Source: a virus. Taken from it: a stretch of 50,193 nt of DNA. The notes under the pieces are model-generated. The model was not told the origin of the DNA. It searched no databases and worked only from the letters and a program-made list of their open reading frames with translations. The stretch's first letter is position 1, and the number at the start of each line of letters is the position of its first letter. The DNA is taken from positions 1 through 50,193 of IMG/VR virus record IMGVR_UViG_3300030116_008164; one strand, written 5' to 3'. The translations under genes and the position numbers were made by a program. This document shows positions 892 to 16,552 of the stretch, in pieces.

Positions 892-1329
892 ATGACTCCT
901 AAATTTGACCTTTTAGTAGAAAAAACTAATCCATCTAAAGATAAAAAAGATATTATTGATAGAATGGATCCTGTTGATAAGTTACAATTAGCTCTAGATG
1001 TAATAGGTATTGAACCTTCAGTAGGTACTATAGCTGATGCTGCAAATATTGTTATTTCATTAGGTCGTATGCTTAATAATGCACGGAAGAAAGAAACGAG
1101 TGAAGTTAAGAGACATGCTATTAACGCTGGTATATCAGCTATATCATTAATACCTTTAGGAGATGTAGCAAAGTTGCTGAAAATCCGTACTTTAGCAAGA
1201 AAAGGTAAGATGGGAAAAGCTGCAGCTAAAGCTAGCATTTCAGGACTTAGATCAGCTAAAACAGGATTAGCTGCAGTTAAGCAAGATAGAGCTGAAAAGA
1301 GTTTACAAAGCGGAGAGTATAGAGCTTAA
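892..1329 (+). CDS. Late-type small protein with pretoxin-like middle and capsid-targeting-like N terminus
   Basis: A 145-residue protein of unknown function. The first ten residues, MTPKFDLLVE, resemble the T4 internal-protein capsid-targeting sequence (MKTYQEFIAE), with a [LIV]-x-E site at residue 10. Residues about 30-95 alternate small hydrophobic segments (VIGIEPSVGTIADAAN, ISLIPLGDVAKLLK) in a way reminiscent of the glycine-rich pretoxin (PT-TG-like) regions of polymorphic toxins; that resemblance is weak. The C terminus is basic and Ala/Lys-rich. It is the only plus-strand gene among early minus-strand replication genes, has its own late box, and overlaps the 3' end of uvsX by 4 bases convergently. 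A head-packaged protein is a possible reading, not shown. Confidence 0.75.
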   Translation: MTPKFDLLVEKTNPSKDKKDIIDRMDPVDKLQLALDVIGIEPSVGTIADAANIVISLGRMLNNARKKETSEVKRHAINAGISAISLIPLGDVAKLLKIRTLARKGKMGKAAAKASISGLRSAKTGLAAVKQDRAEKSLQSGEYRA

Positions 1330-2423
1330 TCATCCTCTAATGTATCATCCTTGCTCTGTGCAGGTTCTTCACTATCACCATACTTATATCTCTCCTTTAG
1401 AGCATCTTCTAATGCAGGTATAATAGTCGTATTCCAAAGATTATGATCTTTACGCCATGACTTATAGTAGCCAAGCTTAGTACCGTCTGCTAGAGCATAC
1501 GTAGAACCATTCTGCTCAATAACTTCTAACCCAATAGCGAGCTCCTTAAGACCGGAATACTTATCTAGACCAGTCTTAAAGTTAAGATACATTTCACACT
1601 CGAGGAAAGGAGGTACAAACCTATTCTTAACCGTAAGAGCTCTTAAGGTAGCACCGCTAAAGTTCTTAGCAGTAGGTAAGATCTCATCATCTACATTAGC
1701 AGAGTCTTGTTTCTCGTTCTTAGAAGCTAATTGCACTAAAACACTAGCAAGATAAACAGGACCTTTACCACCAGACTGTTGCTTAACAAGAGTTGGAAAT
1801 AAAGCAGCCGGATCATCATATGTATGATTAGAGAAAAGAATAGTAGTACCTGTCTTCGCTGCTTTATAGGTGAGAAGTCTCATCATAGACTTAAGAGACT
1901 TAGCTCTCATACCCATATCCATAGCTGCTTTACCTTTTTCTGCGTCTGTTACTTCTTTATCAGCAGCTAAGTTACCAAGGGAATCAATAGAAATAATAAA
2001 CTTACCATGTAAATTATTTTTTTCGATACCGTCGAGGAAAGAGAACATTTGATTTCTGCATTCCCCGACGGTATTTACTGGAACATACTTAGTAGTATCA
2101 GGATCTAACCCAACACCACGCGCAGAACCTTCATCAACTGCCACTTCTGTATCAAAGATAACAGGCATTAGTCCTTTTTTCTGCGCATGCCCAAGAATCT
2201 TATTGATGATATAAGTCTTACCAGTCATCGATGGTCCAGAAAAACCGGTAATACGACCTTTTGGAACGCCACCAAACAAACTACCAGATATAATAGCATT
2301 TAATGCCATACATCCTGTATCATAATAATCTTCAACATTAGATAAACTAGCATCGGTAAGAAAAGATGCTTCTGGATTCAGCTTATCTAAAGATTCAAAG
2401 GCTTTAAGTACGTTTTTATCCAT
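1326..2423 (-). CDS. uvsX: UvsX RecA-like recombinase
   Basis: UvsX forms filaments on single-stranded DNA and drives strand invasion for T4-type recombination-dependent replication. The 365-residue protein carries Walker A GPSMTGKT (residues 63-70), a Walker B-like IISIDS stretch, and a RecA core with an acidic C-terminal tail (DDTLEDD). Length is close to T4 UvsX. The ATG overlaps the stop of the upstream 126-residue gene (TAATG), so the two are translationally coupled and share the promoter at 2815-2842. Its partners UvsY and UvsW are encoded at 10051-11903. Confidence 0.93.
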   Translation of the reverse strand: MDKNVLKAFESLDKLNPEASFLTDASLSNVEDYYDTGCMALNAIISGSLFGGVPKGRITGFSGPSMTGKTYIINKILGHAQKKGLMPVIFDTEVAVDEGSARGVGLDPDTTKYVPVNTVGECRNQMFSFLDGIEKNNLHGKFIISIDSLGNLAADKEVTDAEKGKAAMDMGMRAKSLKSMMRLLTYKAAKTGTTILFSNHTYDDPAALFPTLVKQQSGGKGPVYLASVLVQLASKNEKQDSANVDDEILPTAKNFSGATLRALTVKNRFVPPFLECEMYLNFKTGLDKYSGLKELAIGLEVIEQNGSTYALADGTKLGYYKSWRKDHNLWNTTIIPALEDALKERYKYGDSEEPAQSKDDTLEDD

Positions 2424-2803
2424 TACTTAGATTCTTCTTCATCATCAAACAACTTAACTACACCAGGCTCTTCTGCAGGAGGAGCACCAGCAGGCGGGCC
2501 ACCAGCAGGAGCATTAACAATATTAGTATATTGGTCAACTAATTGTTTATTAAGCTGTAGTCCAGTTGAAGAAACAACACTATTTTTAGGAAATGACCAA
2601 ACAGTATCATTTTCTGTCTCATTAAACTCTTTAAAGAAGTATGGAATTAGTTGCACAGCAATCTGACCTGTTTGTTGATTAGGCTGTACATGTACAATTA
2701 CAGGCTTCTTAACATTAACTGAATCCTCTGGTCCGTCAACAACTTCGCCAAGAAGCGCTCTACCAATAGAATCTACGAATACGGTATGATTAGTATCACT
2801 CAT
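2423..2803 (-). CDS. Conserved phage protein upstream of uvsX, Pro/Ala-rich C terminus
   Basis: A 126-residue protein of unknown function. I chose the ATG at 2803 (MSDTNHTVFVDSIGR); an in-frame TTG at 2812 lies only 2 bases from the -10 box and is less likely. The N-terminal two thirds look like a small beta-rich fold. A P/A/G repeat tract (APAGGPPAGAPPAEEP) precedes an acidic C-terminal tail (LFDDEEESK), a layout common in phage replication-associated proteins that bind partners by an acidic tail. It is coupled to uvsX by a 1-base overlap, so a role in recombination or replication is inferred only from context. Confidence 0.8.
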   Translation of the reverse strand: MSDTNHTVFVDSIGRALLGEVVDGPEDSVNVKKPVIVHVQPNQQTGQIAVQLIPYFFKEFNETENDTVWSFPKNSVVSSTGLQLNKQLVDQYTNIVNAPAGGPPAGAPPAEEPGVVKLFDDEEESK

Positions 2804-2814
2804 AAGTTTCAAAT

Positions 2815-2842
2815 ATTATAACATCACATAAGTTGTTATCAA
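2815..2842 (-). promoter_or_regulatory. Sigma70-type early promoter for the uvsX operon
   Basis: Minus-strand TTGATA (2842-2837) and TATAAT (2820-2815) are separated by 16 bases. The -10 box ends 11 bases before the ATG at 2803. Confidence 0.75.
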
Positions 2843-2844
2843 CT

Positions 2845-5469
2845 TTAAATTTTAAGTAAATCGAATAAATCTGTCTGTACCATCTCTCCTGGTTTACGGC
2901 ATTTCCAACCTACAGATTCATACAACCTTTCAAAAACACTATATACAATCTTCTCAAACATTTTTTCTCTATCAGGTTGGATATCATTTTGAAATTCTTT
3001 CGGGAATGTATACTTGTAACCGAAAGATGGTATTCCATATTTGTTAGGCTTCTTACAATAAAAGTACCTTACCTTATCTCCACTATTAATAGCTTCATAT
3101 TTGTTAGTAAGATTACTTTTTTCTAAGAGGTAGTTATAAAAGTAAGCCGACTTAGCATGTATAGGCATACCCTTATAAGTTTTAAAGTTATTACATTCTT
3201 CGCCAGTTGTTTCAGATATAGTAGTATAGCTTTTAACACCCATAACGAATGCAATATCTTCTAACGGTAGAGTATCAAACAATTCATACATCTCATTAAA
3301 TAAAGTATTAGTTGTATTATAATCCTTAGTACGAATCATCGTCTCAATAATATTTTTAACATGAGGTTTAATAGCTTTAGGCATTGTAGTACGTACAACC
3401 TCAACACCAGTATATTTAAACTTATCAACTGGTATACCCTCATCATCTAGTACATGCAAGATATATCTTTTTTTCTGTAAGAATATACCCCTGCTACAGA
3501 TAGCTTCTCTCTTAAACTCAAACCTACAATCCTGAGAGTTAAGAGCATGCTCACCCCAAGTCTTAATAGAATTATTAAGTATCGTCTCGATTTCATCGGT
3601 AAGTTCAATTATCTCTTTAGTTACTTTCTTACCTTTAGTAAACGGAATATTGCCATGCTCAATAAGATGTTTAATGGTTACGTATACAGAGTCAGTATCA
3701 TTATAAATAACAACAGGATCTTTTCTAATATCCTCATCAGATAAACCTGTTCTTTCTTTTACTAACTCAGTTAAAATCTTATTTGATTTCTTAATAATAG
3801 ATTGACCAGTAAGAGTAATTGATCTTGTAATATCAGGGTCACCCATAGGGGATACTTTATTACCAAAATAACCATAGATACGGTTAATAAGAATCTTAAT
3901 AGTTAACTGCTTAATCTCAGCTTGATCAGCTCTTAACTTAGTTTTAGCATAATCAGGATCATCTTTTTCAAGCTTAGTTAACTTACGTTTAGCAATTGCT
4001 AAGTCTTTCTTAACTGCTTTACGTTTATCATAGTACTTATCTGTAATAAGTGGGAAGATACCTTTCTTCTTTTGAGAGAATAAACAGTTAGCTCGAGTTA
4101 TAGATATATTTTCTTTTTCTACGAACCGAGCAAACTTCTCTTTAGTTAGCTCAACAACTTTACCAGTAATAGATGTAACAACAATATTACCATCACTAGT
4201 AACTTCAAACCTACCAACCTTTGTTTCTGGTGATAGATTAAGCGATATCATAATACTTGGATATAGACTGTTAAGGTCAAAAGAAACTACATTATCTTTG
4301 AAACCTCTCTCAGGTTCACCGACATAAGCACCTTCATATTTGTCACCTGATCTTTCTACTTCAAATGTAGGTACTATCTTTCCTTGACTTCGTGCTTCAA
4401 TAGTAGCTGCTCCAGTAACAACGTTAATAGTACCCATAGCATTTTCTAAGGGTGTAAGTCCGACATATGCTAACATTCGTAGAAGCATCATAAATTGAAG
4501 CTTCTCTTCCATACGCACAAGCAAATTAACGTCTTGAATATTATAATCAACAAACGTTTGCCAATCATTATCAGCTAACGATGCAAGGTTCTGTTCGCCA
4601 TATTCAACCTTCTTTTCTCCAAGTTCAAGTTCAGCAATATCATTAAGCTTATATGATTCACGTAAGCCCTGGGTAAAGCCTTTATAGATATCAAGATAGT
4701 CAACACAGGATACACCTTTTAAATGCCATCTGGTATTCATCTTACCAAACTTGCCTTGAAACTCTCGTTTATAAGAAACATTAACAGGTGAAAGACGATT
4801 AGCAACTTCTTCACCTAGAATCTTAGTAATACGATTCATAAGGTATGGCATATCAAAGAACTCAGAGTTCCAACCAGACAATAAGTCAGGATGATCTTTT
4901 TCAATATGCTCAACAAAACTTAATAATAAGTCCCTTTCACTTTTACATTTTTTATAAGTTACATTATCTAAAGTAGGTTTATAATCTTTCTGTAACCCCC
5001 AAGTATAAAAATGATTTTCTAATGAATCCCATAATGTAATAACATTTACAGTATCTTTAGCGAATTCGGGTATGGGAAACTCATCTGGGCTATATGTTTC
5101 AATATCAATAAATTGTATTTTTAACGGGTTCTCGGTAAATTCAGGTGTATCATTTACCTTCCAATATCTATCAATAAGGAATTGTTGTAATACAGATAGG
5201 TTTTCAAATACACGTACACGTACTTTCTCACCATTCTCTCTCTGCGACCTAACCATTTGACGTATTTGTTCGCCGCGTCTATATTCAACAGGAAACTCGA
5301 ACTTTTTAACAGGAGTATTAAAGATAGAAACACCGTCAGACTTTTGAGTAGTTTCCATATAGAAATAAGGATGGTGAGGTATATCAACAGACATTCTCTT
5401 CCCGTCTTCATCCCACGTAAATAAACGAACACATTGCTCGTCGGGTAAATATGCAATATTCCTATACAC
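2845..5469 (-). CDS. 43: Family B DNA polymerase gp43
   Basis: The replicative polymerase of T4-like phages with 3'-5' proofreading. At 874 residues it is close to T4 gp43. The exonuclease domain shows Exo I DIE (D122/E124) and an Exo II-like GWNSEFFDMPYL segment. Polymerase motif A is SFDLNSLYPSI, motif B is KILINRIYGYFG and motif C is NDTDSVYV, so all catalytic aspartates are present. The C terminus ends in a hydrophobic clamp-binding-like peptide (LFDLLK). Translation starts at GTG 5469, 7 bases after a -10 box that overlaps the downstream end of the glycosyltransferase operon, giving the polymerase its own early promoter. Confidence 0.97.
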   Translation of the reverse strand: MYRNIAYLPDEQCVRLFTWDEDGKRMSVDIPHHPYFYMETTQKSDGVSIFNTPVKKFEFPVEYRRGEQIRQMVRSQRENGEKVRVRVFENLSVLQQFLIDRYWKVNDTPEFTENPLKIQFIDIETYSPDEFPIPEFAKDTVNVITLWDSLENHFYTWGLQKDYKPTLDNVTYKKCKSERDLLLSFVEHIEKDHPDLLSGWNSEFFDMPYLMNRITKILGEEVANRLSPVNVSYKREFQGKFGKMNTRWHLKGVSCVDYLDIYKGFTQGLRESYKLNDIAELELGEKKVEYGEQNLASLADNDWQTFVDYNIQDVNLLVRMEEKLQFMMLLRMLAYVGLTPLENAMGTINVVTGAATIEARSQGKIVPTFEVERSGDKYEGAYVGEPERGFKDNVVSFDLNSLYPSIMISLNLSPETKVGRFEVTSDGNIVVTSITGKVVELTKEKFARFVEKENISITRANCLFSQKKKGIFPLITDKYYDKRKAVKKDLAIAKRKLTKLEKDDPDYAKTKLRADQAEIKQLTIKILINRIYGYFGNKVSPMGDPDITRSITLTGQSIIKKSNKILTELVKERTGLSDEDIRKDPVVIYNDTDSVYVTIKHLIEHGNIPFTKGKKVTKEIIELTDEIETILNNSIKTWGEHALNSQDCRFEFKREAICSRGIFLQKKRYILHVLDDEGIPVDKFKYTGVEVVRTTMPKAIKPHVKNIIETMIRTKDYNTTNTLFNEMYELFDTLPLEDIAFVMGVKSYTTISETTGEECNNFKTYKGMPIHAKSAYFYNYLLEKSNLTNKYEAINSGDKVRYFYCKKPNKYGIPSFGYKYTFPKEFQNDIQPDREKMFEKIVYSVFERLYESVGWKCRKPGEMVQTDLFDLLKI

Positions 5470-5476
5470 TCTCTAT

Positions 5477-5505
5477 AGTATAGTATAACTACCTATTTTC
5501 TTCAA
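5477..5505 (-). promoter_or_regulatory. Sigma70-type early promoter for gene 43
   Basis: Minus-strand TTGAAG (5505-5500) and TATACT (5482-5477) are 17 bases apart. The -35 lies inside the 3' end of the upstream glycosyltransferase gene. The -10 ends 7 bases before the GTG start. Confidence 0.7.
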
Positions 5506-6709
5506 GCGAATTTATCTTAATTCTTTTGGGAGATTTGTATGGATGAGTATATAGCTCGGCATATTTGTCGATATTATCATCTAATTCCAACCATCTACCT
5601 TCTGCTACCTTGCGCGCATCTTTCGACGCTTGCATATACTTTTTATAATTACGTGTTAAGCTTTTTATCTGGTCAATCATCTCATCACCAGTTTTAAATT
5701 TATATGGTGCATTTTCATATGTACATAAATCTTGACATATAACAGGTATACCATAACAGCAAGCTTCTATATATTTTAGATCACTCTTGGCTTTATTAAA
5801 AGTATTATCAACTAACGGAGCAATAAACATATTAGGATTAACATTATGTAATAATTCCGGATATTCATATAATCTTTGCCAAGGATGAAATTCAATTTGA
5901 CCGGAATCTACATATGGTGCTAATGTTAGTGGATAAGCGCCGATAAATACCCATTGAAAATCTTTTACTGTTTTAATAATAGCATCATTAACATGAAAAA
6001 AATCATCTCTTTGCTTTACTCTATTATCAACATCAAAATGGGCACCACTTGCAGAATATACAATTCTAGGCTTTCTTTTATGTTTACTAAAATTTCTCTT
6101 TACTCTTTCAAAGTCATAAAACCTACCCATCCACCATTTAGGTGGGTAATTTGGTATAACAGTAACATTTTTATTACCAGTTTTATCCATGTAATACTGT
6201 TGCATGAATTTATTTGTTACAGTTATTTCGTCTGCTAACTGCATTATCTTTAATGCTGAATCTCTTATTTCAGGATTCTCAAATGCTGGTTTAAATTTAT
6301 TATAATCGGGTATATCTTCTTTAAAGACAATATCATCGATTTCATATAGTATTCTGAAATTTTTTCTACTGCTAAAATCTCTTAATAAATTAGCAAACTT
6401 AAGCTGACTTGGAGTTGCTTGTCTTTGTAAGCGCACAGAATCTGTTGCTTCATACCACCTTTCGTCAAGACACATCATCGTTGTACTATGAACGACAGCT
6501 TTTTGATGTGCATTAAGTAAATGTTCGGGCCAAATCATTCTCCAATAACCACAACCACTATAATCAGCCAAGTAATTAATATTTTTTGTAGCTATTTCTG
6601 GTTTATGATCAATAGGTTGAGGTTGTTGAACCTGAACTGGCGGTTGAAATCTTGGCGCCTGTAACGGTACCCCTATTGGATTAAAACCTATTGGTGCAGT
6701 CTGAAACAT
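5489..6709 (-). CDS. GT-B (GT4-like) glycosyltransferase in the replication operon
   Basis: A 406-residue protein with a Pro/Gln-rich N-terminal 40 residues followed by a glycosyltransferase core. The segment YEIDDIVF and the C-terminal-half motif KSDLKYIEACCYGIPVI (donor-binding E-x7-E-like region of GT4-type enzymes) support the call. It sits downstream of gene 46 in the early uvsY-uvsW-55-47-46 operon rather than in the glycan cluster at 21-38 kb. That position raises the possibility that its acceptor is modified phage DNA, but a cell-surface acceptor is equally possible from sequence alone. No clear promoter of its own is visible; 17 bases separate it from gene 46. Confidence 0.8.
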   Translation of the reverse strand: MFQTAPIGFNPIGVPLQAPRFQPPVQVQQPQPIDHKPEIATKNINYLADYSGCGYWRMIWPEHLLNAHQKAVVHSTTMMCLDERWYEATDSVRLQRQATPSQLKFANLLRDFSSRKNFRILYEIDDIVFKEDIPDYNKFKPAFENPEIRDSALKIMQLADEITVTNKFMQQYYMDKTGNKNVTVIPNYPPKWWMGRFYDFERVKRNFSKHKRKPRIVYSASGAHFDVDNRVKQRDDFFHVNDAIIKTVKDFQWVFIGAYPLTLAPYVDSGQIEFHPWQRLYEYPELLHNVNPNMFIAPLVDNTFNKAKSDLKYIEACCYGIPVICQDLCTYENAPYKFKTGDEMIDQIKSLTRNYKKYMQASKDARKVAEGRWLELDDNIDKYAELYTHPYKSPKRIKINSLEENR

Positions 6710-6726
6710 TTACAGTAGTTATTTTT

Positions 6727-8529
6727 TTAAGCCATATAGGCAACTCGTCGAGTTATACCGTTTTCTTTTTCAAGTTGAATAATATCACCAGTAGCTGCTT
6801 TGGTACTTTCTTTTCTATGACTTATAACAAAAATACATTCATTATGTTTTTCTACTCTTTCACGTAAGATATCTAATACTAACTCTACTCCACGCTCGTC
6901 TAAACTTGAATCAAGTAGCTCATCATAAACACTAAAATTATATGATACATTGCCTTGCAATTTTCTTATATCCATAAAAGCGAATAAGCATGCTAAATCA
7001 ATATTTTTTCTTTCTGCTCCGCTAAAATTAAAATAAGAACAAAGCTTACCTTTTTCATCAATAATTTCATCTTCAAAATACTCATTAAAGATACAAAGAC
7101 AGTTTGCATCCATTTTATTAAGATAATGAGCTAATCTATTATTAAACAATTGTAAAAGTTTCTTTACAATATAAGACTTAACACCTTCTTCAGATACAAT
7201 AAATTTAACTACCTCTAATAAAGATAAATTTAATTTTATATCAGCAAGTTTATCTTCTACTTCTTTTAAACGGCTTTCAGTTTCCTTAATAACATCATCA
7301 AAATCAACTGTACTTTCCTTTAACTTCTTAATATCATCTTTAATTTGTTTATTCCAAACTTCAAGCTGTACTATTCGTGTCTTATTATTTTCAAACTGAT
7401 TTTGTTCTATCTTAAGATTACCGACTTGATCTTTATATTGAGTCTTTTTTCTTTTAAGCTTTTGTTTCGTATCAGAAAGTGTATTAACTTGTGTTTCAAT
7501 TTCTTTTTCTGCACTAGTAAGATCGTTAATCTTATTTGTTAAAGTATTTTTTTCTTCATTAATAGTATCTTTATCATGTTCCGAAAAAGGTTTAAGACAA
7601 ACAGGACATGTTGCATCTTCTGTACCTAATGTATTTCGTTGATTCTTTAAATGGGTCTTGTTAGTTCGATGCTCTACCGACTCACCAGTTAGTTCAGTAA
7701 TTTTATTAGAACATTTATTTATATAATCTTCGAGCTCAATAATCTTATTACTATAGGTCGCTAATTCTTTATCATAATCTATATCAACAGTCTTTTGTAA
7801 TGTATCAAGCTCTTTAATATTATCATCTCTTCTCTTTAAGAGCTCCAACTCACGTTCTCTTTTATCATTTTCAATTTTATCTTTCTGCCTTTTATGTGTT
7901 GAAAGTGATTTTTCAACTTCTTCTTGTTTACTAAATTGTACATCATAATCTCTCTTTTTATCATTATATTGAGAACGTACAGATTGAAGCATATTACTAA
8001 AAACTTCTAAATTAAAAATACCTTCAATAAATTTTCTCTTTTCAACTTTCTTCTTTCCCATAAACGGGATAGTATTATTAAGAGTCATAATAACACAATT
8101 TTGAAATATATCTTGTGATGCTGACAACTGCTTTAGTATAAAATCTGTTGTATTATTAATTGAATCTCTTGTTTTATCTTCTCCGTCAATATAAAGATAA
8201 CATTTAGAAGGCTCTAATTTACGAATAATTCTGCAGTTTGATACTCTTTCATCTACTTTAATATCAAACTCTAAGTTAACTTCACAATCTTTTTGATTAA
8301 TATGATTGACAATATTTTCTTTCTTTAGTTCACGTATAGTGCTACCAAAGATAGCAAAGTGAATGGCATCGGCAATAGTAGACTTACCGACACCATTACG
8401 CCTGTCTTCTTTATCCTTGTTTATTCCTGTAATAATATGAAGACCAGGCTTAAAATCTATTACAACCTCATCATCTCCAACTGAGAGGAAGTTTCTTATA
8501 CTTAACTTTTTTAAATCTATCTGCTTCAT
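6727..8529 (-). CDS. 46: gp46 recombination endonuclease subunit (SbcC/Rad50-like ATPase)
   Basis: With gp47 this forms the T4 Mre11/Rad50-type nuclease complex that processes DNA ends for recombination and host DNA breakdown. The 600-residue protein has an N-terminal Walker A NGVGKST (residues 45-51) in a loop longer than usual, two long charged coiled-coil arms, and a zinc hook CPVC at about residue 300. The C-terminal lobe has the ABC signature-like FSGAERKNIDLA and Walker B VYDELLDSSLD. Start ATG is 8529, four bases after the gp47 stop, so the two are co-translated. Confidence 0.95.
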   Translation of the reverse strand: MKQIDLKKLSIRNFLSVGDDEVVIDFKPGLHIITGINKDKEDRRNGVGKSTIADAIHFAIFGSTIRELKKENIVNHINQKDCEVNLEFDIKVDERVSNCRIIRKLEPSKCYLYIDGEDKTRDSINNTTDFILKQLSASQDIFQNCVIMTLNNTIPFMGKKKVEKRKFIEGIFNLEVFSNMLQSVRSQYNDKKRDYDVQFSKQEEVEKSLSTHKRQKDKIENDKRERELELLKRRDDNIKELDTLQKTVDIDYDKELATYSNKIIELEDYINKCSNKITELTGESVEHRTNKTHLKNQRNTLGTEDATCPVCLKPFSEHDKDTINEEKNTLTNKINDLTSAEKEIETQVNTLSDTKQKLKRKKTQYKDQVGNLKIEQNQFENNKTRIVQLEVWNKQIKDDIKKLKESTVDFDDVIKETESRLKEVEDKLADIKLNLSLLEVVKFIVSEEGVKSYIVKKLLQLFNNRLAHYLNKMDANCLCIFNEYFEDEIIDEKGKLCSYFNFSGAERKNIDLACLFAFMDIRKLQGNVSYNFSVYDELLDSSLDERGVELVLDILRERVEKHNECIFVISHRKESTKAATGDIIQLEKENGITRRVAYMA

Positions 8530-8533
8530 TACC

Positions 8534-9601
8534 TTATTGCAATGTGCTCTTATATAACTCTAGAGTATACTCGGTAACCTTAGTTTTATTATCGATATCC
8601 ATCAAGTCAATAAACTCTTCTATAGCTGCTTCTATATCAATACCAGATAAATCTTTTCTCGTATCGTCACTAATTGCAAACATATTAAAATTATTTGCAT
8701 AATCAACATTAATAGAGATTGGTTTATATGAATTTAATTTTTGTACAACAAAGTCAATCTCATCTGGTGCAATATTTCTATCAATTATAAATTTAACAAA
8801 GCTATTTTCAAGACTTTCTTTTACATCTTTAGTTAACTTCTTTTGTTTTACTAAATCTGATAGAAGTAGCTTAGTATGCTTTGGAGATATCTCATTCTCA
8901 AAAAAATCAAACGTTTTATCCTCAACATCTAATATATAGTATCCCTTTGAACTACCAACGTCTCCAAAATCCATCTGAAATGGAGATCCTAAATAAAGAA
9001 TCGTACCATTATTATACTTTCTTTCTTCTCTTAAATGAAAATGACCAGTAATAATTAAATTAGACTTTGCTAATAGATCTTTTGAACTTACTCCAGACTG
9101 ACACACCTTAAAATTAGTTTGTTTAAATGAATTTATCTCAAAATGTCCGAAAACAATATCGCTTTCCGGAATATCTTCTACCCCAACACCCCAAGGTACA
9201 AAGGTAATTTTTTTACCAAAGATGGTTTCACTACGTAGCTCTGGAACAATAGTAATATTAGGCCAACCTTGAAGAATAGTTAGTGAATTAACATCAGATC
9301 TATCTTTATAGTAAGCATCATGGTTACCAACAAGAATAATAATATTAAACTCTCTCCACTCATCTAATATCTCTTTTACAAAATGAATAGTATTAACAGC
9401 AATTTCATCTCTATAGTGAAAAAAATCACCACTAATAATAATATCTTTTATATCTTTATCTCTTAACTCATTAGCTAACCATTTTGACCATTGTAAAATA
9501 ATTTGATGCCATTGAGAGCTATTTTGATGGACACCTATATGTATATCACTAACGCAGCAGACACGTCTATCGTTTAAAAAAATATCTCTCTTATTATTCA
9601 T
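8534..9601 (-). CDS. 47: gp47 recombination endonuclease subunit (SbcD/Mre11-like nuclease)
   Basis: The metal-dependent nuclease partner of gp46. The 355-residue protein shows calcineurin-like phosphoesterase motifs in order: SDIHIG (D19/H21), SGDFFHYRD, GNHDAYY and GHFHLR, which supply the two-metal ligands. Length matches T4 gp47. Its ATG overlaps the end of gene 55 by 8 bases. It is part of the early operon from uvsY. Confidence 0.95.
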   Translation of the reverse strand: MNNKRDIFLNDRRVCCVSDIHIGVHQNSSQWHQIILQWSKWLANELRDKDIKDIIISGDFFHYRDEIAVNTIHFVKEILDEWREFNIIILVGNHDAYYKDRSDVNSLTILQGWPNITIVPELRSETIFGKKITFVPWGVGVEDIPESDIVFGHFEINSFKQTNFKVCQSGVSSKDLLAKSNLIITGHFHLREERKYNNGTILYLGSPFQMDFGDVGSSKGYYILDVEDKTFDFFENEISPKHTKLLLSDLVKQKKLTKDVKESLENSFVKFIIDRNIAPDEIDFVVQKLNSYKPISINVDYANNFNMFAISDDTRKDLSGIDIEAAIEEFIDLMDIDNKTKVTEYTLELYKSTLQ

Positions 9602-10085
9602 TTAACTCTTGAGAGGTATTATTCGTATTATTGTTTGTATATATGTTTGATCCTGGATTGGAATTAACTAAATCGGCATAAATAGTCTCTTGATAGCTAT
9701 TAACCGTTTCTCGATATTTCTTTTCCTTTTTAATACGATTAATAAAAGCATGAAACGCAATAGTTGTATAATACGAGAAAGGATTATGTTTAGATGTTAT
9801 GTCAAACTTCTTGCCTTTCAGAGCGGAAAACATTTTTAGTATAGCATCTCCAACCATTTCATCTTTATAAGAGTAATTAATAAAGTTTGGTGCATAACTT
9901 AATCCATTAGCAATCTTAGTCACCATTTGAGCTAAATTATCAGTAATATTATCTGTTTCATAATATGCTTTAAGCTCTTCTAAAAACTCTTTAGAATTAA
10001 CGTAATGTTTAGCCTTATCAGTATTTTTAGGCTTTTTCTTTCTGCCCTTTTTAGGTGCTGTTTTCTTTAATGGTTTTTCTCCCAT
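9594..10085 (-). CDS. 55: gp55 late-transcription sigma factor
   Basis: gp55 redirects host RNA polymerase to late promoters of the TATAAATA type. The 163-residue protein has a Lys-rich N terminus, a central region with SYKDEMVGDAILKMFSAL, and HNPFSYYTTIAFHAFINRIKK, which parallels the sigma-2-like core of T4 gp55 ([21 protein letters not shown]). The C terminus is Asn/Thr-rich. It overlaps uvsW by 35 bases and gene 47 by 8. Late-type boxes found in this window (for example at 17891 and 42178) are its expected targets. Confidence 0.88.
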   Translation of the reverse strand: MGEKPLKKTAPKKGRKKKPKNTDKAKHYVNSKEFLEELKAYYETDNITDNLAQMVTKIANGLSYAPNFINYSYKDEMVGDAILKMFSALKGKKFDITSKHNPFSYYTTIAFHAFINRIKKEKKYRETVNSYQETIYADLVNSNPGSNIYTNNNTNNTSQELNE

Positions 10086-11511
10086 AACAAATTTCTTCCT
10101 TGTTGTAATGTTCTATACGTTTTTGAAGATGTTGTCTCCCATACATAAGATCATCACCAATATCAATGATTATAAGCTGCTGTTTCGTCTTATGCAACCG
10201 TAAACCTCTACCAATTGATTGAATAGTCTTAATTTTGGCTTTACCACCACCTGCAAAAATAATATAATGTAAGTTTTTAATATTAATACCTGTTGAAAAT
10301 ATTTTAGATATTGCAATAACAACTACATCATTACTAACTTCCATCAGTTGTTTTACTTTATCTCTATCTTTAACAGCAACTTCACCTCTTATAAAATATA
10401 CCTTCTTATTATTACAATGCCTTTCAACATAATCTAATAAAATTTCTCCATGTTCAATATAGTCAATTAATATAAGAGCATTATTTGTAAATTTATTAGC
10501 TAACTTACCAATAATATTATTCCTAAAATCACTATTAATAATAAAGTCGATTTCTCTTTTGTATCTTTTCGTAGGCGTAAGTGGTTCGGATGGATATAAA
10601 ACATATTTTGGTTGAGTTTCGTATTTTAAATCTAAAATTTGTGCCTTAACTTGTGCAATATAATTTTCCTCTCTTAATGAGGCGCTATTCTTTTCATATA
10701 AAACAGGACCAATCTTACCTATTATGTTCCATTGATCCATCATCTCTTCTGGCATCGTACCTGTAAACCCGTATCTATGTGGTGTACGAATCTTATTAAT
10801 AATTTTATTAATTTTATTACCCTGTCTTACTTTATGTACCTCATCTATAATACATAAATCAACATGATGTATCCAATCTGTATCTGACTTGCTGCTTTGT
10901 AATATACCCAAATTACAAATAACTATATTAGTTGTAAGATCTAGTTCATCATCTCCTGTCCATTTTGAAAAAGTAAATGTTACACCATAATCTTTTAAAT
11001 CATTATATGTCTGTTCAACTAACCCTCTATCAGGTACTATAATGACACCTTTAAAATTATTCTCATCTTGTTGTTTATAAATAGATTGAACTAAAGAAGA
11101 CATTGTTAATGTTTTACCTCCAGCAGTCGCAAGTATAACTGTACCTCTACCTACCTTAAGACATCTGTTAACGATATCTTCTTGGTAGTCTCTTAATTTT
11201 AGATCAAGTTGTAAGGGTACTGTTTTATCATAGCCAGGTTTAACGTTAGATAAAAATGTATCAGTATAGTTTATATCATCATCAATATTATGTTCAGATA
11301 TAAAATCAATAATCTGTTTATATAATCCAGCATCAAATCTACCTGCAGGTGTTATTGCATATTTTCTTGCTGGTATAAACGTTCTACCAAACCTTCTTGC
11401 AAACTTTGCTGCATCATTCTTTACAGAAAAATGTTCTCTTATCTGATCCAGGCTTTCACATTTCATGATACCCTGTCTTCTACCACTATCCCATTCGAAG
11501 TTGAGGCTCAT
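10051..11511 (-). CDS. uvsW: UvsW SF2 helicase
   Basis: UvsW unwinds R-loops and branched DNA and drives the switch to recombination-dependent replication in T4. The 486-residue protein shows Walker A LATAGGKT (residues 127-134), motif II DEVH (223-226), motif III TGTMP and motif VI SIGRGLRLHK. The ATG overlaps the uvsY stop (ATGA), and the 3' end overlaps gene 55. Length is close to T4 UvsW. Confidence 0.93.
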   Translation of the reverse strand: MSLNFEWDSGRRQGIMKCESLDQIREHFSVKNDAAKFARRFGRTFIPARKYAITPAGRFDAGLYKQIIDFISEHNIDDDINYTDTFLSNVKPGYDKTVPLQLDLKLRDYQEDIVNRCLKVGRGTVILATAGGKTLTMSSLVQSIYKQQDENNFKGVIIVPDRGLVEQTYNDLKDYGVTFTFSKWTGDDELDLTTNIVICNLGILQSSKSDTDWIHHVDLCIIDEVHKVRQGNKINKIINKIRTPHRYGFTGTMPEEMMDQWNIIGKIGPVLYEKNSASLREENYIAQVKAQILDLKYETQPKYVLYPSEPLTPTKRYKREIDFIINSDFRNNIIGKLANKFTNNALILIDYIEHGEILLDYVERHCNNKKVYFIRGEVAVKDRDKVKQLMEVSNDVVVIAISKIFSTGINIKNLHYIIFAGGGKAKIKTIQSIGRGLRLHKTKQQLIIIDIGDDLMYGRQHLQKRIEHYNKEEICYGRKTIKENST

Positions 11512-11903
11512 GTTGTTTCAAGTTTCATAATTTCTGTAACGTTCTTGATATCAAACGTCATAGAACTAAAAATTTTCTCTACTTTCTCTAAATACTCAAT
11601 TACTAAATATGTTTCTTTTATCTTAGCGTCTATTTTTAATACAGAATCTACCTTCGATACTTTCTTTTCAGCAATAGGTTCAGCTATCTTAACTGGACTT
11701 TCACTTATTAATTTAACAGTTAATTCTCTAATTAATAATTCTTTTTCTTTTCGAAGTTCTTTGACTTCATATTTATGTCTCATCAATCTACCAACCCATT
11801 TATGTTTAATAGCTGGAAGTTTCATCTGTATATCTAACAAATTAAAATTATCTACACTGGTGTCTTGCACCATTTCTTCCATATATTTGTCTAATGTCGA
11901 CAT
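11508..11903 (-). CDS. uvsY: UvsY recombination mediator
   Basis: UvsY loads UvsX on single-stranded DNA covered by gp32. The 131-residue protein matches T4 UvsY in size, mostly helical charged character and order of elements: an N-terminal helix with LDKYMEEMVQD, the central KWVGRLMRHKYEVKELRKE helix, and VDSVLKIDAKI in the C-terminal half. It is the first gene of the early operon, directly followed by uvsW through an ATGA overlap, the same pairing as in related phages. Function is assigned by similarity and context; no catalytic motif exists in this family. Confidence 0.8.
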   Translation of the reverse strand: MSTLDKYMEEMVQDTSVDNFNLLDIQMKLPAIKHKWVGRLMRHKYEVKELRKEKELLIRELTVKLISESPVKIAEPIAEKKVSKVDSVLKIDAKIKETYLVIEYLEKVEKIFSSMTFDIKNVTEIMKLETT

Positions 11904-11909
11904 AACCTA

Positions 11910-11917
11910 TATAAATA
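11910..11917 (+). promoter_or_regulatory. T4-late promoter box TATAAATA
   Basis: A perfect TATAAATA on the plus strand, 24 bases before the ATG at 11942. It overlaps the divergent early promoter of uvsY. Confidence 0.65.
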
Positions 11918-11942
11918 ATAGTATAAGATTGGAATAATTCAA
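11915..11942 (-). promoter_or_regulatory. Sigma70-type early promoter for the uvsY-uvsW-55-47-46 operon
   Basis: Minus-strand TTGAAT (11942-11937) and TATTAT (11920-11915) have a 16-base spacer. The -10 ends 11 bases before the uvsY ATG. Confidence 0.65.
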
Positions 11943-12178
11943 TGAGTAATCTTTTTGAAAATCGTTTTGTTAAGCTTTTAGAGGATATGACTGCTGGTGG
12001 AGAAGGTAGTGCTTTCGGTCCAGGAGTAGATTCAACAGCTAATCAATTTTCTGGAGATAATTATGCACCAGGGGATGCTCGTAACCTTTTTGGATCAGGC
12101 AAAAAGCCAGTTATACAAACTAGACCAGGTTTAAAACGTAAATGTCCTAAAAAGCGTGGCAAAAAGAAATGTAAGTAA
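11942..12178 (+). CDS. Small basic late protein with capsid-targeting-like N terminus
   Basis: A 78-residue protein of unknown function. The N terminus MSNLFENRFVKLLE has an amphipathic character and an L-x-E site at residue 14 like the T4 prohead protease consensus. The middle is Gly/Ser/Ala-rich (FGPGVDSTANQFSGDN) and the C terminus is strongly basic (KCPKKRGKKKCK) with two cysteines, suited to binding DNA. It has a late-type promoter and heads a run of late genes. A packaged internal head protein is the simplest guess; no domain was recognised. Confidence 0.8.
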   Translation: MSNLFENRFVKLLEDMTAGGEGSAFGPGVDSTANQFSGDNYAPGDARNLFGSGKKPVIQTRPGLKRKCPKKRGKKKCK

Positions 12179-12189
12179 TAACTAATCCT

Positions 12190-12600
12190 GTGGAGGATAA
12201 ATTAGATATAGGACATTGGACGTTTAATGGTGTATGGCCTACTGAATGCTTCGGGTTTATCTATGAAATAACTAATAACACCACTCAAAAGAAGTATATT
12301 GGTAAAAAACAAGTTCAAAAAATTATAAAACGTCCTCCGCTTAAAGGTAAAAAGAACAAACGTCATGTAATTACCGAGTCAGATTGGAAAACTTATACAG
12401 GATCATGTAATGAGCTTAATAATCAGATTGTTTCCGATGGTAAAGATAAGTTTACCTTTAATATACTGCGTATTTGTAATAATAAGTGGGAGTTATCCTA
12501 CTATGAAGCTGAATTGCAATTTAAATTAGGTGTTTTGCTAAGAGATGACTACTATAACGGTATAATTAACTGCAGAATCGGAAAAAAACCACGAAAATAG
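12190..12600 (+). CDS. GIY-YIG-like nuclease-domain protein
   Basis: A 136-residue protein starting at GTG 12190. Residues about 22-42 (GFIYEITNNTTQKKYIGKKQ) match the GIY-YIG nuclease core, with the first motif degenerated to GFIY and the second present as KYIG. A conserved-looking SDWKTYTGS stretch follows, then a Tyr/Glu segment (YYEAELQFKLGVLL), where the family usually has its catalytic Glu. Such short GIY-YIG proteins are common in T4-like phages as free-standing homing-type endonucleases. It follows the 78-residue late gene by 11 bases. Whether it still cuts DNA cannot be judged. Confidence 0.7.
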   Translation: MEDKLDIGHWTFNGVWPTECFGFIYEITNNTTQKKYIGKKQVQKIIKRPPLKGKKNKRHVITESDWKTYTGSCNELNNQIVSDGKDKFTFNILRICNNKWELSYYEAELQFKLGVLLRDDYYNGIINCRIGKKPRK

Positions 12601-12629
12601 TTGCACTAGTGGGAAAAAGTAGCTATAAT
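12601..12629 (+). promoter_or_regulatory. Sigma70-type promoter
   Basis: TTGCAC (12601-12606) and a perfect TATAAT (12624-12629) are 17 bases apart. The -10 ends 7 bases before the GTG at 12637. The -35 is weak. Confidence 0.55.
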
Positions 12630-12636
12630 CCGCGTA

Positions 12637-13212
12637 GTGGGACAGAAAGAAACATATTCACTTAATAATTTTACTATAATTGACTTTCATACCCTATTCC
12701 TCCGTAAAATTGAAGGTAAAATTATTAATGATTACAGTGATTACGGTTTATTAGATAAAAAACTACGTCTAAACAACAAAGATACACGTAATTTACTGTT
12801 ACATCACGTAATATTTGAGTTATGCCAGTTTATTCTTAGTAAAAAAACCGGTAAACATGTTATATTTGTTAGTTTAGATCATAAATCATTAGCTGGTTCA
12901 CAATTTTTAACATTAAATTTAATTGATCCGACTGAGCTTAACATATTTTTAACTAAAAAACTACAAAGATTAGCTAAGATACTTCCAATTAGGTTTATTT
13001 TTACAGAAGATATATTTAACAATTATATTTTTGAACTACAAACATGCGGCGGACAGCGAGAAGAGCTTAATATGTTTATTGATTCAACGGATAATAAATT
13101 TGTTAAATATAGATTTGATAAGTTATTACAATTTGCAAAAAGATTTAATCTTACTTTTTTATCTGAAGACTATTTTAAACAAATAAAGAATAAGCAGCTA
13201 CTTATAAAATAA
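12637..13212 (+). CDS. Hypothetical protein, early-type promoter
   Basis: A 191-residue protein I do not recognise. It starts at GTG 12637, just downstream of a TATAAT box, so initiation would be nearly leaderless. The sequence alternates hydrophobic strands (KHVIFVSLDH, LPIRFIFTEDIF) with charged helices and ends in a basic tail. Such alternation would fit a small alpha/beta fold. No membrane segment or signal peptide is seen. The neighbours are late genes, so its early-type promoter is unusual here. Confidence 0.7.
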   Translation: MGQKETYSLNNFTIIDFHTLFLRKIEGKIINDYSDYGLLDKKLRLNNKDTRNLLLHHVIFELCQFILSKKTGKHVIFVSLDHKSLAGSQFLTLNLIDPTELNIFLTKKLQRLAKILPIRFIFTEDIFNNYIFELQTCGGQREELNMFIDSTDNKFVKYRFDKLLQFAKRFNLTFLSEDYFKQIKNKQLLIK

Positions 13213-13215
13213 ATA
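13208..13215 (+). promoter_or_regulatory. T4-late-type box AATAAATA
   Basis: AATAAATA spans the stop codon of the preceding gene and lies 6 bases before the ATG at 13222. Confidence 0.5.
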
Positions 13216-13221
13216 TTTTAT

Positions 13222-13530
13222 ATGTCCAGTTTCGCGAAAATAATCTCAGAACAAGGTTCCCAATATGGAGTTCACTTTGAACAAGAAGCACCTCCGGTTG
13301 AACCTGTACCAGCTCCTGCTCCTGAACAAGATGTTACTGAACCTGCTGAGCCAGCCCAGCTATCTTCAGAAGGTAAAAAATTTATGATTAGTTTAGGTCT
13401 TAAAGCTCTACGTATTGATTCTGATCTTTTATCTGAGGATGATTTATTTAATGCAGCTAGTGATGTAACAGATGAGAATGCAGATGATATGTTAGATTTT
13501 TTGATGGCTAAAGTTGAAGAGCACAAATAA
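13222..13530 (+). CDS. Small acidic late protein with capsid-targeting-like N terminus
   Basis: A 102-residue protein. MSSFAKIISE at the N terminus has an I-S-E site at residue 10, the same position as in the T4 internal proteins. A Pro/Glu/Ala tract (VEPVPAPAPEQDVTEPAEPA) follows, then an acidic helical C-terminal half (ALRIDSDLLSEDDLFNAASD). It is followed after one base by the ligase-like gene and has a late-type box. A scaffold or internal head protein is plausible; no function can be assigned. Confidence 0.78.
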   Translation: MSSFAKIISEQGSQYGVHFEQEAPPVEPVPAPAPEQDVTEPAEPAQLSSEGKKFMISLGLKALRIDSDLLSEDDLFNAASDVTDENADDMLDFLMAKVEEHK

Positions 13531-13531
13531 A

Positions 13532-14596
13532 ATGATTACATTTGAAGAATATTGCTTATTACAAGAAGGAGGAGCTGGTGGACATATGGCTCATCCTTTT
13601 GATTTGCCCGATGTCAATAACGGTAAACAACTTCTTAAAAAGTTTGATCAAGTAATTAATTATCTACAGAACACTCCTGCAGCAATTAAACTTGACGGTG
13701 TTAATGCAGCTGTAAAAATTATTACTAATGAAAATGGCGATAAAGAGTTTGCCATGGATAGAGGTTCAATGAAGCCTCTTGATGTTAAAGGTATAACACA
13801 GAGAGATTTATTAGATAGATTTGGCGAAGGTCATGGTATGGTCAACGTAGGTCAGGTTCTTCTTCCAATTCTGAATGCAGTAATAGAAACTGCTGAACCA
13901 GAATTAACTAAATTAGGACTTTTAGGTGATCAAGACCCTACTGAGTCTATATTCTTGAATATAGAATATATATCCGGTAAGACCAATGTCGTCGATTACG
14001 GGCAAAATATCATAGCACTGTTAGGGGTCAATAAGTTTACTGTAGCTCCAACAGGCAAATCAAGAAGAGGGTCAGAAATAAAATACAATCCAAAAGTTCT
14101 TGAAAGCCTTAAGGATAAATTACAAATTGTTGCCCGTAATCAAGACTTTACAGTTTATACCAGTATACCCGGTTCATTAAATGGGAGAGTGAGTTATAGT
14201 GATGTTCTTCAAGAACCAATTACAGTACAATATACACCCGATGAAGCTGAGACAAAAAGTTTAGGTGTTTGGTTAAATACAGCTATTAACCCACGTGATA
14301 CAAAAGTAGACATTAATGGTAAGAAGCAAACTGCTATGACCAAATCATTATATTTTTATGTAATGCAAGGTCAAGGACCATTAAGCGATCTTACTGAAGA
14401 TAAAAAAGCTCAAAAAATGATTGTAGATGGAGCTGTTATATATCACGCTACAAAAAATATTGGTGAGTTAATTAAACTTAATGTTGTATCTCCAGTAGAT
14501 GTAGGAGAAGGTTTAGTAATAAGAGGCCTTGGTAACATCCCATTTAAGATTACGGGTGAATTTATTGTTAGCGGCTTAATGACAGGATTCAGATAA
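13532..14596 (+). CDS. Ligase-fold nucleotidyltransferase with capsid-targeting-like N terminus
   Basis: A 354-residue protein; ATG 13532 is chosen because it gives the N terminus MITFEEYCLLQE and lies directly after the preceding stop. Motifs of the covalent nucleotidyltransferase (ATP-dependent ligase/capping) superfamily are visible: motif I K53-L-D-G, with K53 as likely adenylation site; a DRGSMKPLD stretch; a motif III-like FLNIEYI; motif IV EGLVIR (326-331); and motif V lysine K339 (PFKI). There is no recognisable OB domain. It overlaps the downstream HxGH nucleotidyltransferase gene by one base. Substrate (DNA, RNA or other) is unknown. The N-terminal L-Q-E site at residue 12 suggests packaging in the head and cleavage by the prohead protease. 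Confidence 0.7.
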   Translation: MITFEEYCLLQEGGAGGHMAHPFDLPDVNNGKQLLKKFDQVINYLQNTPAAIKLDGVNAAVKIITNENGDKEFAMDRGSMKPLDVKGITQRDLLDRFGEGHGMVNVGQVLLPILNAVIETAEPELTKLGLLGDQDPTESIFLNIEYISGKTNVVDYGQNIIALLGVNKFTVAPTGKSRRGSEIKYNPKVLESLKDKLQIVARNQDFTVYTSIPGSLNGRVSYSDVLQEPITVQYTPDEAETKSLGVWLNTAINPRDTKVDINGKKQTAMTKSLYFYVMQGQGPLSDLTEDKKAQKMIVDGAVIYHATKNIGELIKLNVVSPVDVGEGLVIRGLGNIPFKITGEFIVSGLMTGFR

Positions 14597-15144
14597 TGAA
14601 AACGTTCAAGCAATTTGTAACTGAAGCTGAAAGAACTGGTGTTGCTATATTACCAGGTGGATTTAAACCACCACATAAAGGACATTTCGAAGCTCTCAGA
14701 CATATCGTCAATCAAAATAATGCAGCTGCAGCTGTAGTATTTATTGGTAAGAAAGACCGAGATGGTATAACTGCAGAACAATCAAAAGCAATTTGGGACA
14801 TATATGGTAAGTATGTTGGAGTACCTGTCACAGTTGCTGTCTCACAAATAACACCTGTTAAGGATGTATATGAATACGCTGAAGAAGTAAAAGATAGACC
14901 TATTTTTGTTGGAGCGGGTGAAGAAGACATGGCAAGATATTCTTATTTTGAAAAGAATAAAGAAACTTTTCCTAATGTAAGTTTAGTTGCTATACCTCCT
15001 CAATTTGGTCGTATTAGTGGTACCGATACAAGAAAAAAGATCCAAGATAATGATCTCGAATCTTTAAACTTTATTCCAGACCAAGTACATTGGACTGATA
15101 AAGAAGTTATATATAAAGATATTCTTGGTCTTACAGTAAGCTAA
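14596..15144 (+). CDS. HxGH nucleotidyltransferase (NMNAT/cytidylyltransferase-like) with capsid-targeting-like N terminus
   Basis: A 182-residue protein. MKTFKQFVTEA is nearly the T4 internal-protein leader MKTYQEFIAEA. After it comes a Rossmann-like nucleotidyltransferase: GGFKPPHKGH (the HxGH motif, here H-K-G-H) and the C-terminal ISGTDTRKK (ISGTxxR) motif that binds the triphosphate. These motifs are shared by NMN adenylyltransferases, phosphopantetheine adenylyltransferases and relatives; which nucleotide and acceptor are used is unclear. It is coupled by a 1-base overlap to the ligase-like gene and is convergent with folE2. A NadR-kinase-like gene lies at 19611. Confidence 0.82.
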   Translation: MKTFKQFVTEAERTGVAILPGGFKPPHKGHFEALRHIVNQNNAAAAVVFIGKKDRDGITAEQSKAIWDIYGKYVGVPVTVAVSQITPVKDVYEYAEEVKDRPIFVGAGEEDMARYSYFEKNKETFPNVSLVAIPPQFGRISGTDTRKKIQDNDLESLNFIPDQVHWTDKEVIYKDILGLTVS

Positions 15145-16182: not shown

Positions 16183-16185
16183 ATG

Positions 16186-16193
16186 AATAAATA
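16186..16193 (+). promoter_or_regulatory. T4-late-type box AATAAATA
   Basis: AATAAATA on the plus strand, 31 bases before ATG 16225 and overlapping the divergent folE2 -10 box. Confidence 0.4.
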
Positions 16194-16218
16194 ATAATAT
16201 ACAATAATTTATTTTCAA
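16191..16218 (-). promoter_or_regulatory. Sigma70-type early promoter for folE2
   Basis: Minus-strand TTGAAA (16218-16213) and TATTAT (16196-16191) with a 16-base spacer. The -10 ends 8 bases before the ATG at 16182. Confidence 0.75.
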
Positions 16219-16224
16219 GTAAAA

Positions 16225-16521: not shown

Positions 16522-16545
16522 ACTTATCTCATATGCATATATAAT
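16518..16545 (+). promoter_or_regulatory. Sigma70-type early promoter for queD-queE
   Basis: TTGAAC (16518-16523) and TATAAT (16540-16545) with a 16-base spacer. The -10 ends 7 bases before ATG 16553. Confidence 0.75.
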
Positions 16546-16552
16546 TTTGTAT

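What the first reader, a model, noticed from the sequence alone, without database searches (positions are those of the whole stretch)
892..15144. A family of late proteins sharing a capsid-targeting-like N terminus
Five late-region proteins begin with a short peptide like T4's MKTYQEFIAE leader, ending in [LIV]-x-E: MTPKFDLLVE (892), MSNLFENRFVKLLE (11942), MSSFAKIISE (13222), MITFEEYCLLQE (13532) and MKTFKQFVTE (14596). In three the Glu is exactly residue 10, as in T4 IPI-IPIII. The bodies after it are unrelated: pretoxin-like, basic, acidic, ligase-fold and HxGH nucleotidyltransferase. T4 uses this leader to pack internal proteins that are cut by gp21 protease and injected into the host. This suggests a set of injected effectors, two of them enzymes.
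Basis: partly seen in the sequence, partly recalled or inferred. Interest (0 to 1): 0.78.

Follow-up and report, generated by a model that had tools for sequence, protein, structure and literature searches.

The report
Portable head-packing tags on phage enzymes
Several unrelated proteins of this T4-like phage start with a short removable tag that probably sends them into the virus head for delivery into the next bacterium; the same kind of tag occurs on dozens of unrelated protein families in uncultured phages, and sometimes inside long multi-enzyme chains, so it can be used to find cargo that phages carry in their heads.

Summary
Judged on the window alone they are weak evidence (p=0.12 for a range test, 0.0007 for exact residue 10, post hoc). 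Relatives make the case. The ligase-like protein keeps [LIV]-x-E just before GGAGGHM in 51 of 51 distinct sequences; in 37 the site lies inside a longer protein, usually a fusion to an HxGH nucleotidyltransferase, like a polyprotein cut site. The 11942 protein resembles the gp23 segment just after gp23's own predicted cut site, and its gene carries a conserved T4-type late promoter. The 892 body occurs elsewhere as a module after L-K-E. A related leader, MIKLKDLL[x]E, heads 58 unrelated bodies in viral contigs (Nudix, 2H/Acb1-like, zeta-toxin-like kinases); a scrambled pattern gave no hit, and residue 10 is Glu in 85% when not required. gp21-type (S77) proteases sit in 24 of 30 relatives' contigs. 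Best reading: head-targeting propeptides cut by a gp21 homologue, as in T4 internal proteins, extended to enzymes, large cargo sets and polyproteins. Packaging, cutting and injection are inferred; the window is a 50-kb fragment without the protease.

The parts
892..921 (+). Leader MTPKFDLLVE of the 892-1329 protein; predicted cut after Glu10
   Evidence: similar leader MKFDLLVE in front of a different, HxGH-like protein in G002
922..1329 (+). 892 body, 135 aa, basic (pI 10.2); function unknown
   Evidence: No Pfam/PHROG hit; only relative found is a C-terminal module after ...FKLKE| of a leader-bearing ligase-like protein in L165, E=2.8e-17
11910..11917 (+). TATAAATA, T4-type late promoter consensus directly upstream of the cargo cluster
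   Evidence: total count in the window is at chance level; conserved directly upstream of the 11942-family gene in 15 of 26 relatives, about 0.01 expected per upstream stretch
11942..11983 (+). Leader MSNLFENRFVKLLE; predicted cut after Glu14
   Evidence: leader varies (MEKSTGKFARYFKRILQE, MSLFDNIVNSILKE, MKTFKQFVYSE, MISFKQYYNE) while the Glu at its end and the following DMTAGG-like body persist
11984..12178 (+). Body resembling the gp23 mature N-arm (DMTAGGEGSAFG...DNYAPGDAR) plus a basic tail
   Evidence: Family HMM matches 10 gp23 proteins of relatives at E 1.4e-11 to 1.9e-6, starting at or just after their predicted cut site; shuffled gp23 E>=1.8
12190..12600 (+). SegE-like GIY-YIG endonuclease, no leader; neighbour in the conserved cluster
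   Evidence: PF19835 E=4.2e-32
12637..13212 (+). Unknown protein without leader, conserved in the cluster
   Evidence: No Pfam/PHROG hit; relatives among the fetched loci
13222..13251 (+). Leader MSSFAKIISE; cut after Glu10 (or alternatively after Glu20, VHFE)
   Evidence: distant relatives have leaders of other length ending in a similar site (PLLE, AIYNE, QINE)
13252..13530 (+). Acidic body (pI 4.1), function unknown
13532..13567 (+). Leader MITFEEYCLLQE; predicted cut after Glu12
   Evidence: P1 Glu 51/51, P3 I/L/V 51/51 and P4 hydrophobic 50/51 in non-redundant relatives, 14 leader-type and 37 internal; leader disordered in the model
13568..14596 (+). RNA-ligase-like nucleotidyltransferase body (KLDGVN, EGLVIR and FKI motifs)
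   Evidence: Invariant K53-x-D-G-x-N, E326-G-x-V, K339 in 36 sequences; AlphaFold2 pLDDT 90; best PDB matches include RNA ligases and capping enzymes but are weak, RNA editing ligase 1 E=0.01
14596..14625 (+). Leader MKTFKQFVTE; predicted cut after Glu10
   Evidence: T4 IPI begins MKTFKEF; 42 of 45 non-redundant standalone relatives have hydrophobic-x-E within residues 7-15
14626..15144 (+). HxGH nucleotidyltransferase body (NMNAT/PPAT type; GGFKPPHKGH, ISGTDTR)
   Evidence: AlphaFold2 pLDDT 92.8 with leader about 61; PDB matches PPAT 1.8e-6 and NadD 7.9e-6; cellular homologues begin where the leader ends

Best explanation
The leaders are head-targeting propeptides of the T4 internal-protein type. 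Late in infection the tagged proteins are made, their amphipathic N terminus holds them in the prohead core, and a gp21-family (S77) prohead protease cuts after the Glu of [LIV]-x-E, which frees the body inside the head. The freed enzymes (RNA-ligase-like and HxGH nucleotidyltransferase) would then enter the next cell with the DNA, most likely to act against host defence or RNA/nucleotide damage before phage genes are expressed. In relatives the same sites sit between domains, so several enzymes travel as one polyprotein and are separated in the head. Shown by sequence: portable leaders, conserved cut motif at leader ends and domain junctions, match to the gp23 cut-site region, late promoter, co-occurring S77 protease. 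Inferred: packaging, cleavage, injection and function.
For: Leaders persist in distant relatives while other leader residues change. Ligase-like family: Glu at P1 in 51/51 and I/L/V at P3 in 51/51, in both leader and internal positions; two internal copies look like a former leader including its Met (MKLKDLIVE|GG, MRFKDLIIE|GG). Predicted gp23 sites in the same phages follow the same rule (KQLVTE|A, WCIQE|A). The 11942 family matches gp23 at that site. MIKLKDLL[x]E heads 123 ORFs with 58 unrelated bodies; scrambled pattern 0 hits; Glu10 in 68 of 80 when not required. Unrelated proteins of one genome share N termini far above background: G012 64 pairs against 0-1. S77 protease in 24/30 contigs, and in 10/21 contigs found only through the MIKLKDLL pattern. 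T4 control: 8 of 9 known gp21 substrates in the stretch read show hydrophobic-x-E within the first 20 residues. T4 biology: gp21 cuts after L/I-x-E, and the IPIII leader targets through residues 4 and 7 and is processed through 8 and 10 (PMC9026906).
Against: No virion proteomics for any of these phages. No protease in the window fragment. Many marine HxGH relatives end in Y/F-F-E at residue 9, an aromatic P3 that is not the T4 L/I-x-E consensus, and three have no hydrophobic-x-E at all (L013, L014, L042). Immuto-type polyproteins lack an N-terminal leader, and only three of their conserved hydrophobic-x-E positions fall at plausible junctions. G001 and G002 show no significant excess in the simple motif count. 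892 has only one relative.
Confidence: 0.77

Rival explanations
1. Head proteins, not effectors: the leaders target proteins to the prohead and are cut, but the bodies work in the capsid (core, DNA condensation, head maturation) and are not delivered to act in the host.
For: 11942 resembles the gp23 N-arm plus a basic tail; 13222 is a small acidic protein that could be core-like; in T4, head proteins 21, 22, 24 and 68 also begin with such a site.
Against: The bodies of 13532 and 14596 keep catalytic motifs, and tagged bodies in other phages include Nudix, 2H/Acb1-like and zeta-toxin-like kinases, which have no evident role in a capsid.
Confidence: 0.25
2. Polyvalent proteins processed by their own metallopeptidase: the multi-domain chains are cut by zincin domains that they carry, as proposed for polyvalent proteins, and not by the prohead protease.
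For: Immuto-type chains contain HExxH-like motifs (HEMIHH, HEIEHL) with a weak, below cut-off Peptidase_M91 match; autoprocessing was proposed for polyvalent proteins (PMC5512222).
Against: Standalone tagged proteins and simple HxGH-ligase fusions show no such domain by eye, yet keep the same site; the site matches the predicted gp23 sites of the same phages.
Confidence: 0.12
3. Coincidence or common ancestry only: the N termini are ordinary starts and the Glu belongs to the folded domain.
For: Window-only statistics are weak (p=0.12); Glu directly precedes a conserved GGAGGHM motif in the ligase-like family.
Against: Leaders are low-confidence in the models, absent from cellular HxGH homologues and shared by 58 unrelated bodies, with a scrambled control of zero.
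Confidence: 0.03

Closest known systems
T4 internal proteins IPI-IPIII and Alt with capsid targeting sequences (cut by gp21)
   Same: Short N-terminal leader, often F/Y at residue 4 and aromatic/hydrophobic at 7, cut motif [LIV]-x-E, otherwise unrelated bodies, late expression, S77 protease in relatives
   Different: Bodies are RNA-ligase-like and HxGH nucleotidyltransferases; leader lengths vary more; dozens of tagged families; sites also inside polyproteins; packaging not shown
Polyvalent proteins (Iyer et al. 2017, PMC5512222)
   Same: Several unrelated enzymatic domains in one phage polypeptide, predicted to be injected
   Different: Here domain junctions carry prohead-protease-type sites and the same modules also occur as separately tagged genes; the passages read discuss autoprocessing by a built-in metallopeptidase
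Prohead-protease-processed ejection proteins of giant phages (phiKZ, 201phi2-1, SPN3US)
   Same: Many head proteins lose propeptides after a Glu-ending motif
   Different: Those use an S80-type protease and A/S-x-E motifs (PMC5694885); here the motif is [LIV]-x-E with S77-type proteases and short T4-like leaders
Phage RNA ligases and NadM/NadR-type adenylyltransferases (PMC9503650)
   Same: Catalytic motifs; proposed role in RNA repair and NAD+ salvage against host defence
   Different: Here they carry removable head-targeting leaders, which implies delivery with the DNA instead of synthesis after infection

Membership tests
T4-type internal protein with capsid targeting sequence | N-terminal leader of about 10-19 residues ending in L/I-x-E | tested here: met
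   Four of five leaders have L or I at P3 (LVE, LLE, ISE, LQE); 14596 has V; ligase-like family P3 I/L/V 51/51
T4-type internal protein with capsid targeting sequence | Targeting residues at positions 4 and 7 (Y4, F7 in IPIII) | tested here: inconclusive
   MKTFKQFVTE F4/F7 and MITFEEY F4/Y7 fit; MSSFAKI F4/I7 partly; MTPKFDL and MSNLFEN have F5. Residue roles from PMC9026906
T4-type internal protein with capsid targeting sequence | gp21 (S77) prohead protease in the same genome | tested here: inconclusive
   Absent from the 50-kb fragment; present in 24 of 30 contigs of relatives
T4-type internal protein with capsid targeting sequence | Late expression | tested here: met
   TATAAATA upstream of 11942, conserved in 15 of 26 relatives: sequence evidence only, for the cluster 11942-15144; for 892 no exact match
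T4-type internal protein with capsid targeting sequence | Presence in virions with the N terminus starting after the Glu, and injection | not testable with these tools
   No proteomics found for these phages
Polyvalent proteins | Several domains of disparate activity in one phage polypeptide | tested here: met
   For relatives, not the window: HxGH-ligase fusions, L135, L142, immuto gp088
RNA ligase / nucleotidyltransferase superfamily (13532) | Motif I K-x-D-G, motif IV EG-x-V, motif V lysine | tested here: met
   Invariant in 36 sequences
RNA ligase / nucleotidyltransferase superfamily (13532) | Superfamily fold by structure comparison | tested here: inconclusive
   RNA ligases and capping enzymes are among the top PDB matches, but best E=0.01 and TM-scores about 0.2
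HxGH nucleotidyltransferase, NMNAT/PPAT type (14596) | HxGH motif and Rossmann-like adenylyltransferase fold | tested here: met
   HKGH in the sequence; PDB matches PPAT 1.8e-6, NadD 7.9e-6; sequence profile match to an NMNAT-type protein 5e-5. Substrate not determined

The most novel reading that the evidence does not exclude
Uncultured T4-like phages share a modular packing code: short, interchangeable leaders ending in [LIV]-x-E mark dozens of unrelated proteins per genome for the head, many of them enzymes against host defence, and the same leaders are fused in frame to build polyproteins that the prohead protease splits inside the capsid. The leader alone then predicts the injected arsenal of a phage from its sequence.
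Probability: 0.55. Interest if true: 0.87.

Novelty: new variant of a known kind. Interest (0 to 1): 0.77.

Why it matters
Which proteins a phage delivers with its DNA is known for few phages. A leader readable from sequence would give a list of candidate first-strike and counter-defence proteins for many uncultured phages, would suggest a role for many nameless families, and provides natural tags for loading enzymes into phage heads. Polyproteins matured by a prohead protease inside a capsid would be an unusual maturation route for phage cargo.

Tried and rejected
DNA-level and protein searches of named phages found no close relative; only Flavobacterium immuto phages, and weakly Prevotella Lak phages, for the HxGH protein. 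Pretoxin domain for 892: no Pfam/PHROG hit. The search for related loci for 892: none. PDB sequence search with the ligase-like profile: only chance hits. Enrichment of short basic modules (CWxGY, CKxRAD, FCARM) among leader proteins: too few, p=0.09. TATAAATA count in the window as a whole is not above chance. A regular expression for leader Met kept at internal junctions found none because it demanded K as the fifth residue; the cases MKLKDLIVE and MRFKDLIIE are visible. Literature searches found no earlier description of these leaders in environmental phages, in an open-access library only.
Full report
Observation. The window is a whole 50,193-base IMG/VR record, a fragment of a T4-like phage. 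All five proteins and leaders are present. 13532 is an internal ATG of a longer reading frame; near relatives begin with the matching MISFKNYTLLQE. The T4 comparison holds for IPII and IPIII (MKTYQEFIAE) but T4 IPI has its Glu at 19; its start, MKTFKEF, is however closest to the window's MKTFKQF. The 'pretoxin' label for 892 has no profile support.

Chance in the window. Hydrophobic-hydrophobic-x-E with Glu at 8-16 is found in 9 of 61 genes, p=0.12 against positions 21-60. With Glu exactly at 10 there are 4 against 0.39 expected (p=0.0007), but this test was chosen after seeing the data. The window alone would not settle the matter.

Near relatives. Related contigs keep the leaders with changes at other residues: MKTFKQFVTE/MQTFKQFVHE, MITFEEYCLLQE/MISFKNYTLLQE, MSSFAKIISE/MSSFEKLIAE, MSNLFENRFVKLLE/MNNLFEQRFNRLLE.

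HxGH family (14596). Of 45 non-redundant standalone relatives, 42 have hydrophobic-x-E between residues 7 and 15, mostly at 9 (MKTFKEYFE, MINFKQFFE), and 43 have an aromatic residue at 3-5. The marine versions have an aromatic P3, unlike the T4 consensus, and three lack the Glu. Cellular homologues begin where the leader ends. AlphaFold2 gives a confident body and an unsure leader; PDB matches are PPAT and NadD.

Ligase-like family (13532). Aligned at GGAGGHM, 14 leader-type and 37 internal non-redundant sequences all have Glu at P1 and I/L/V at P3; P4 is hydrophobic in 50 of 51; no other upstream position is fixed. In the internal cases the domain is mostly fused behind an HxGH-type domain (45 of 56 fused sequences hold a PG[RG]F[QK]P motif upstream). 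Two internal junctions, MKLKDLIVE|GG and MRFKDLIIE|GG, look like a leader swallowed whole, Met included. Motifs K-x-D-G-x-N, EG-x-V and a late Lys are invariant; the model is confident but its PDB matches, led by RNA editing ligase 1, are weak, so 'RNA-ligase-like' rests mainly on motifs.

Basic protein (11942). In its relatives the leader is exchanged (MEKSTGKFARYFKRILQE, MSLFDNIVNSILKE, MKTFKQFVYSE, MISFKQYYNE) while the Glu at its end and the body persist. The body, TAGxGG...S-D-x-YAPGDAR-x-PK, matches gp23 of ten relatives at or just after their predicted cut site, E 1.4e-11 to 1.9e-6, with shuffled gp23 at 1.8 or worse. So this protein appears to reuse the gp23 maturation-site region with a basic tail, which ties the motif to a capsid cut site. 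A T4-type late promoter, TATAAATA, lies directly upstream of this gene in 15 of 26 relatives (about 0.01 expected each) and in the window at 11910-11917.

Acidic protein (13222) and 892. Distant relatives of 13222 begin with other leaders that end in a similar site, such as MKFTETLKKYQPLLE|Q and MKTLNIFKKYEAIYNE|A. For 892 the one relative is the C-terminal module of a leader-bearing ligase-like protein in L165, directly after FKLKE; its leader resembles MKFDLLVE of an HxGH-like gene in G002. This member is the least certain.

Breadth. In G012, 64 pairs of unrelated proteins share their N-terminal 12 residues against 0-1 in background windows; G002 has 12 against 0-1 and immuto 19 against 0-6. 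G012 has a run of adjacent genes starting MIKLKDLL[x]E or MKKSEL[x]LIRE. Without asking for Glu, residue 10 is Glu in 68 of 80. Bodies include three Nudix clusters, a 2H/Acb1-like phosphoesterase (below the Pfam cut-off) and two zeta-toxin-like kinases.

Polyproteins. L135 and L142 (1,213 and 1,317 aa) hold shared modules in different order, with hydrophobic-x-E near module borders by eye; L135 includes a plastocyanin-like domain. Immuto-type chains keep three hydrophobic-x-E sites at likely junctions (286, 496, 702), but also have such motifs inside domains and no N-terminal leader.

Protease. S77 (gp21) was found in 24 of 30 contigs of relatives, gp23 in 19, and S77 in 10 of 21 contigs found only through the MIKLKDLL pattern; the background rate among viral contigs was not measured. 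It is not in the window fragment.

Mechanism and status. In T4, gp21 cuts after L/I-x-E, and the IPIII leader targets through residues 4 and 7 and is processed through 8 and 10 (PMC9026906); T-even internal proteins are diverse defence proteins joined by a common leader (PMC3012670). The same logic fits here. What is new is the kind of cargo, the number of tagged families, and the reuse of the leader as an internal cut site. Packaging, cutting, injection and enzyme function remain inferences. No earlier report of these leaders was found in the open-access library searched; subscription papers and preprints were not covered.

Noticed in passing
window 143-853, 15145-16353, 16511-17098, 17071-17895: Genes for 7-deazaguanine (preQ0-type) synthesis: QueC-like and FolE-like by eye, QueD and QueE by PHROGs; suggests modified phage DNA. 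Immuto phage has such genes plus DpdA.
   Followed up: partly
window 21619-37887: Long block of sugar and glycosyltransferase genes (epimerases, rhamnose-type epimerase, aminotransferase- and TPP-enzyme-like proteins), large for a phage.
   Followed up: partly
L135:5439-9077: Plastocyanin/azurin-type copper domain (PF00127, E=1.6e-15) inside a phage polyprotein next to HxGH and ligase-like modules.
   Followed up: partly
G012 (L253 3072-16264) and immuto (L002, L004): Further leader classes shared by unrelated proteins: MKKSEL[x]LIREEV..L[x]E, MENFDLKKFLVENKLTxNSxLLxE, MKKQILSEQFxRMQxLAGIITE.
   Followed up: partly
L010 3367-4536; L045 3400-4726; L051 6517-7936: A longer leader of the form SL[x]D[x]Y..P[x]LPRQ shared by proteins with different bodies.
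   Followed up: no
L013 7861-9246; L035, L039, L043; G012 7307-7891: Short Cys-containing basic modules (RRKSFCARMSG..., CKRRADSVYGKKTSAY..., CWKGYRQFGMKKKG...) recur in otherwise unrelated proteins, possibly DNA- or core-binding.
   Followed up: partly
L013 3-2792: Protein of at least 929 aa made of many repeats of the type IGGGxxNxASGxYSTIGGG, probably a tail-fibre or adhesin head-repeat protein.
   Followed up: no
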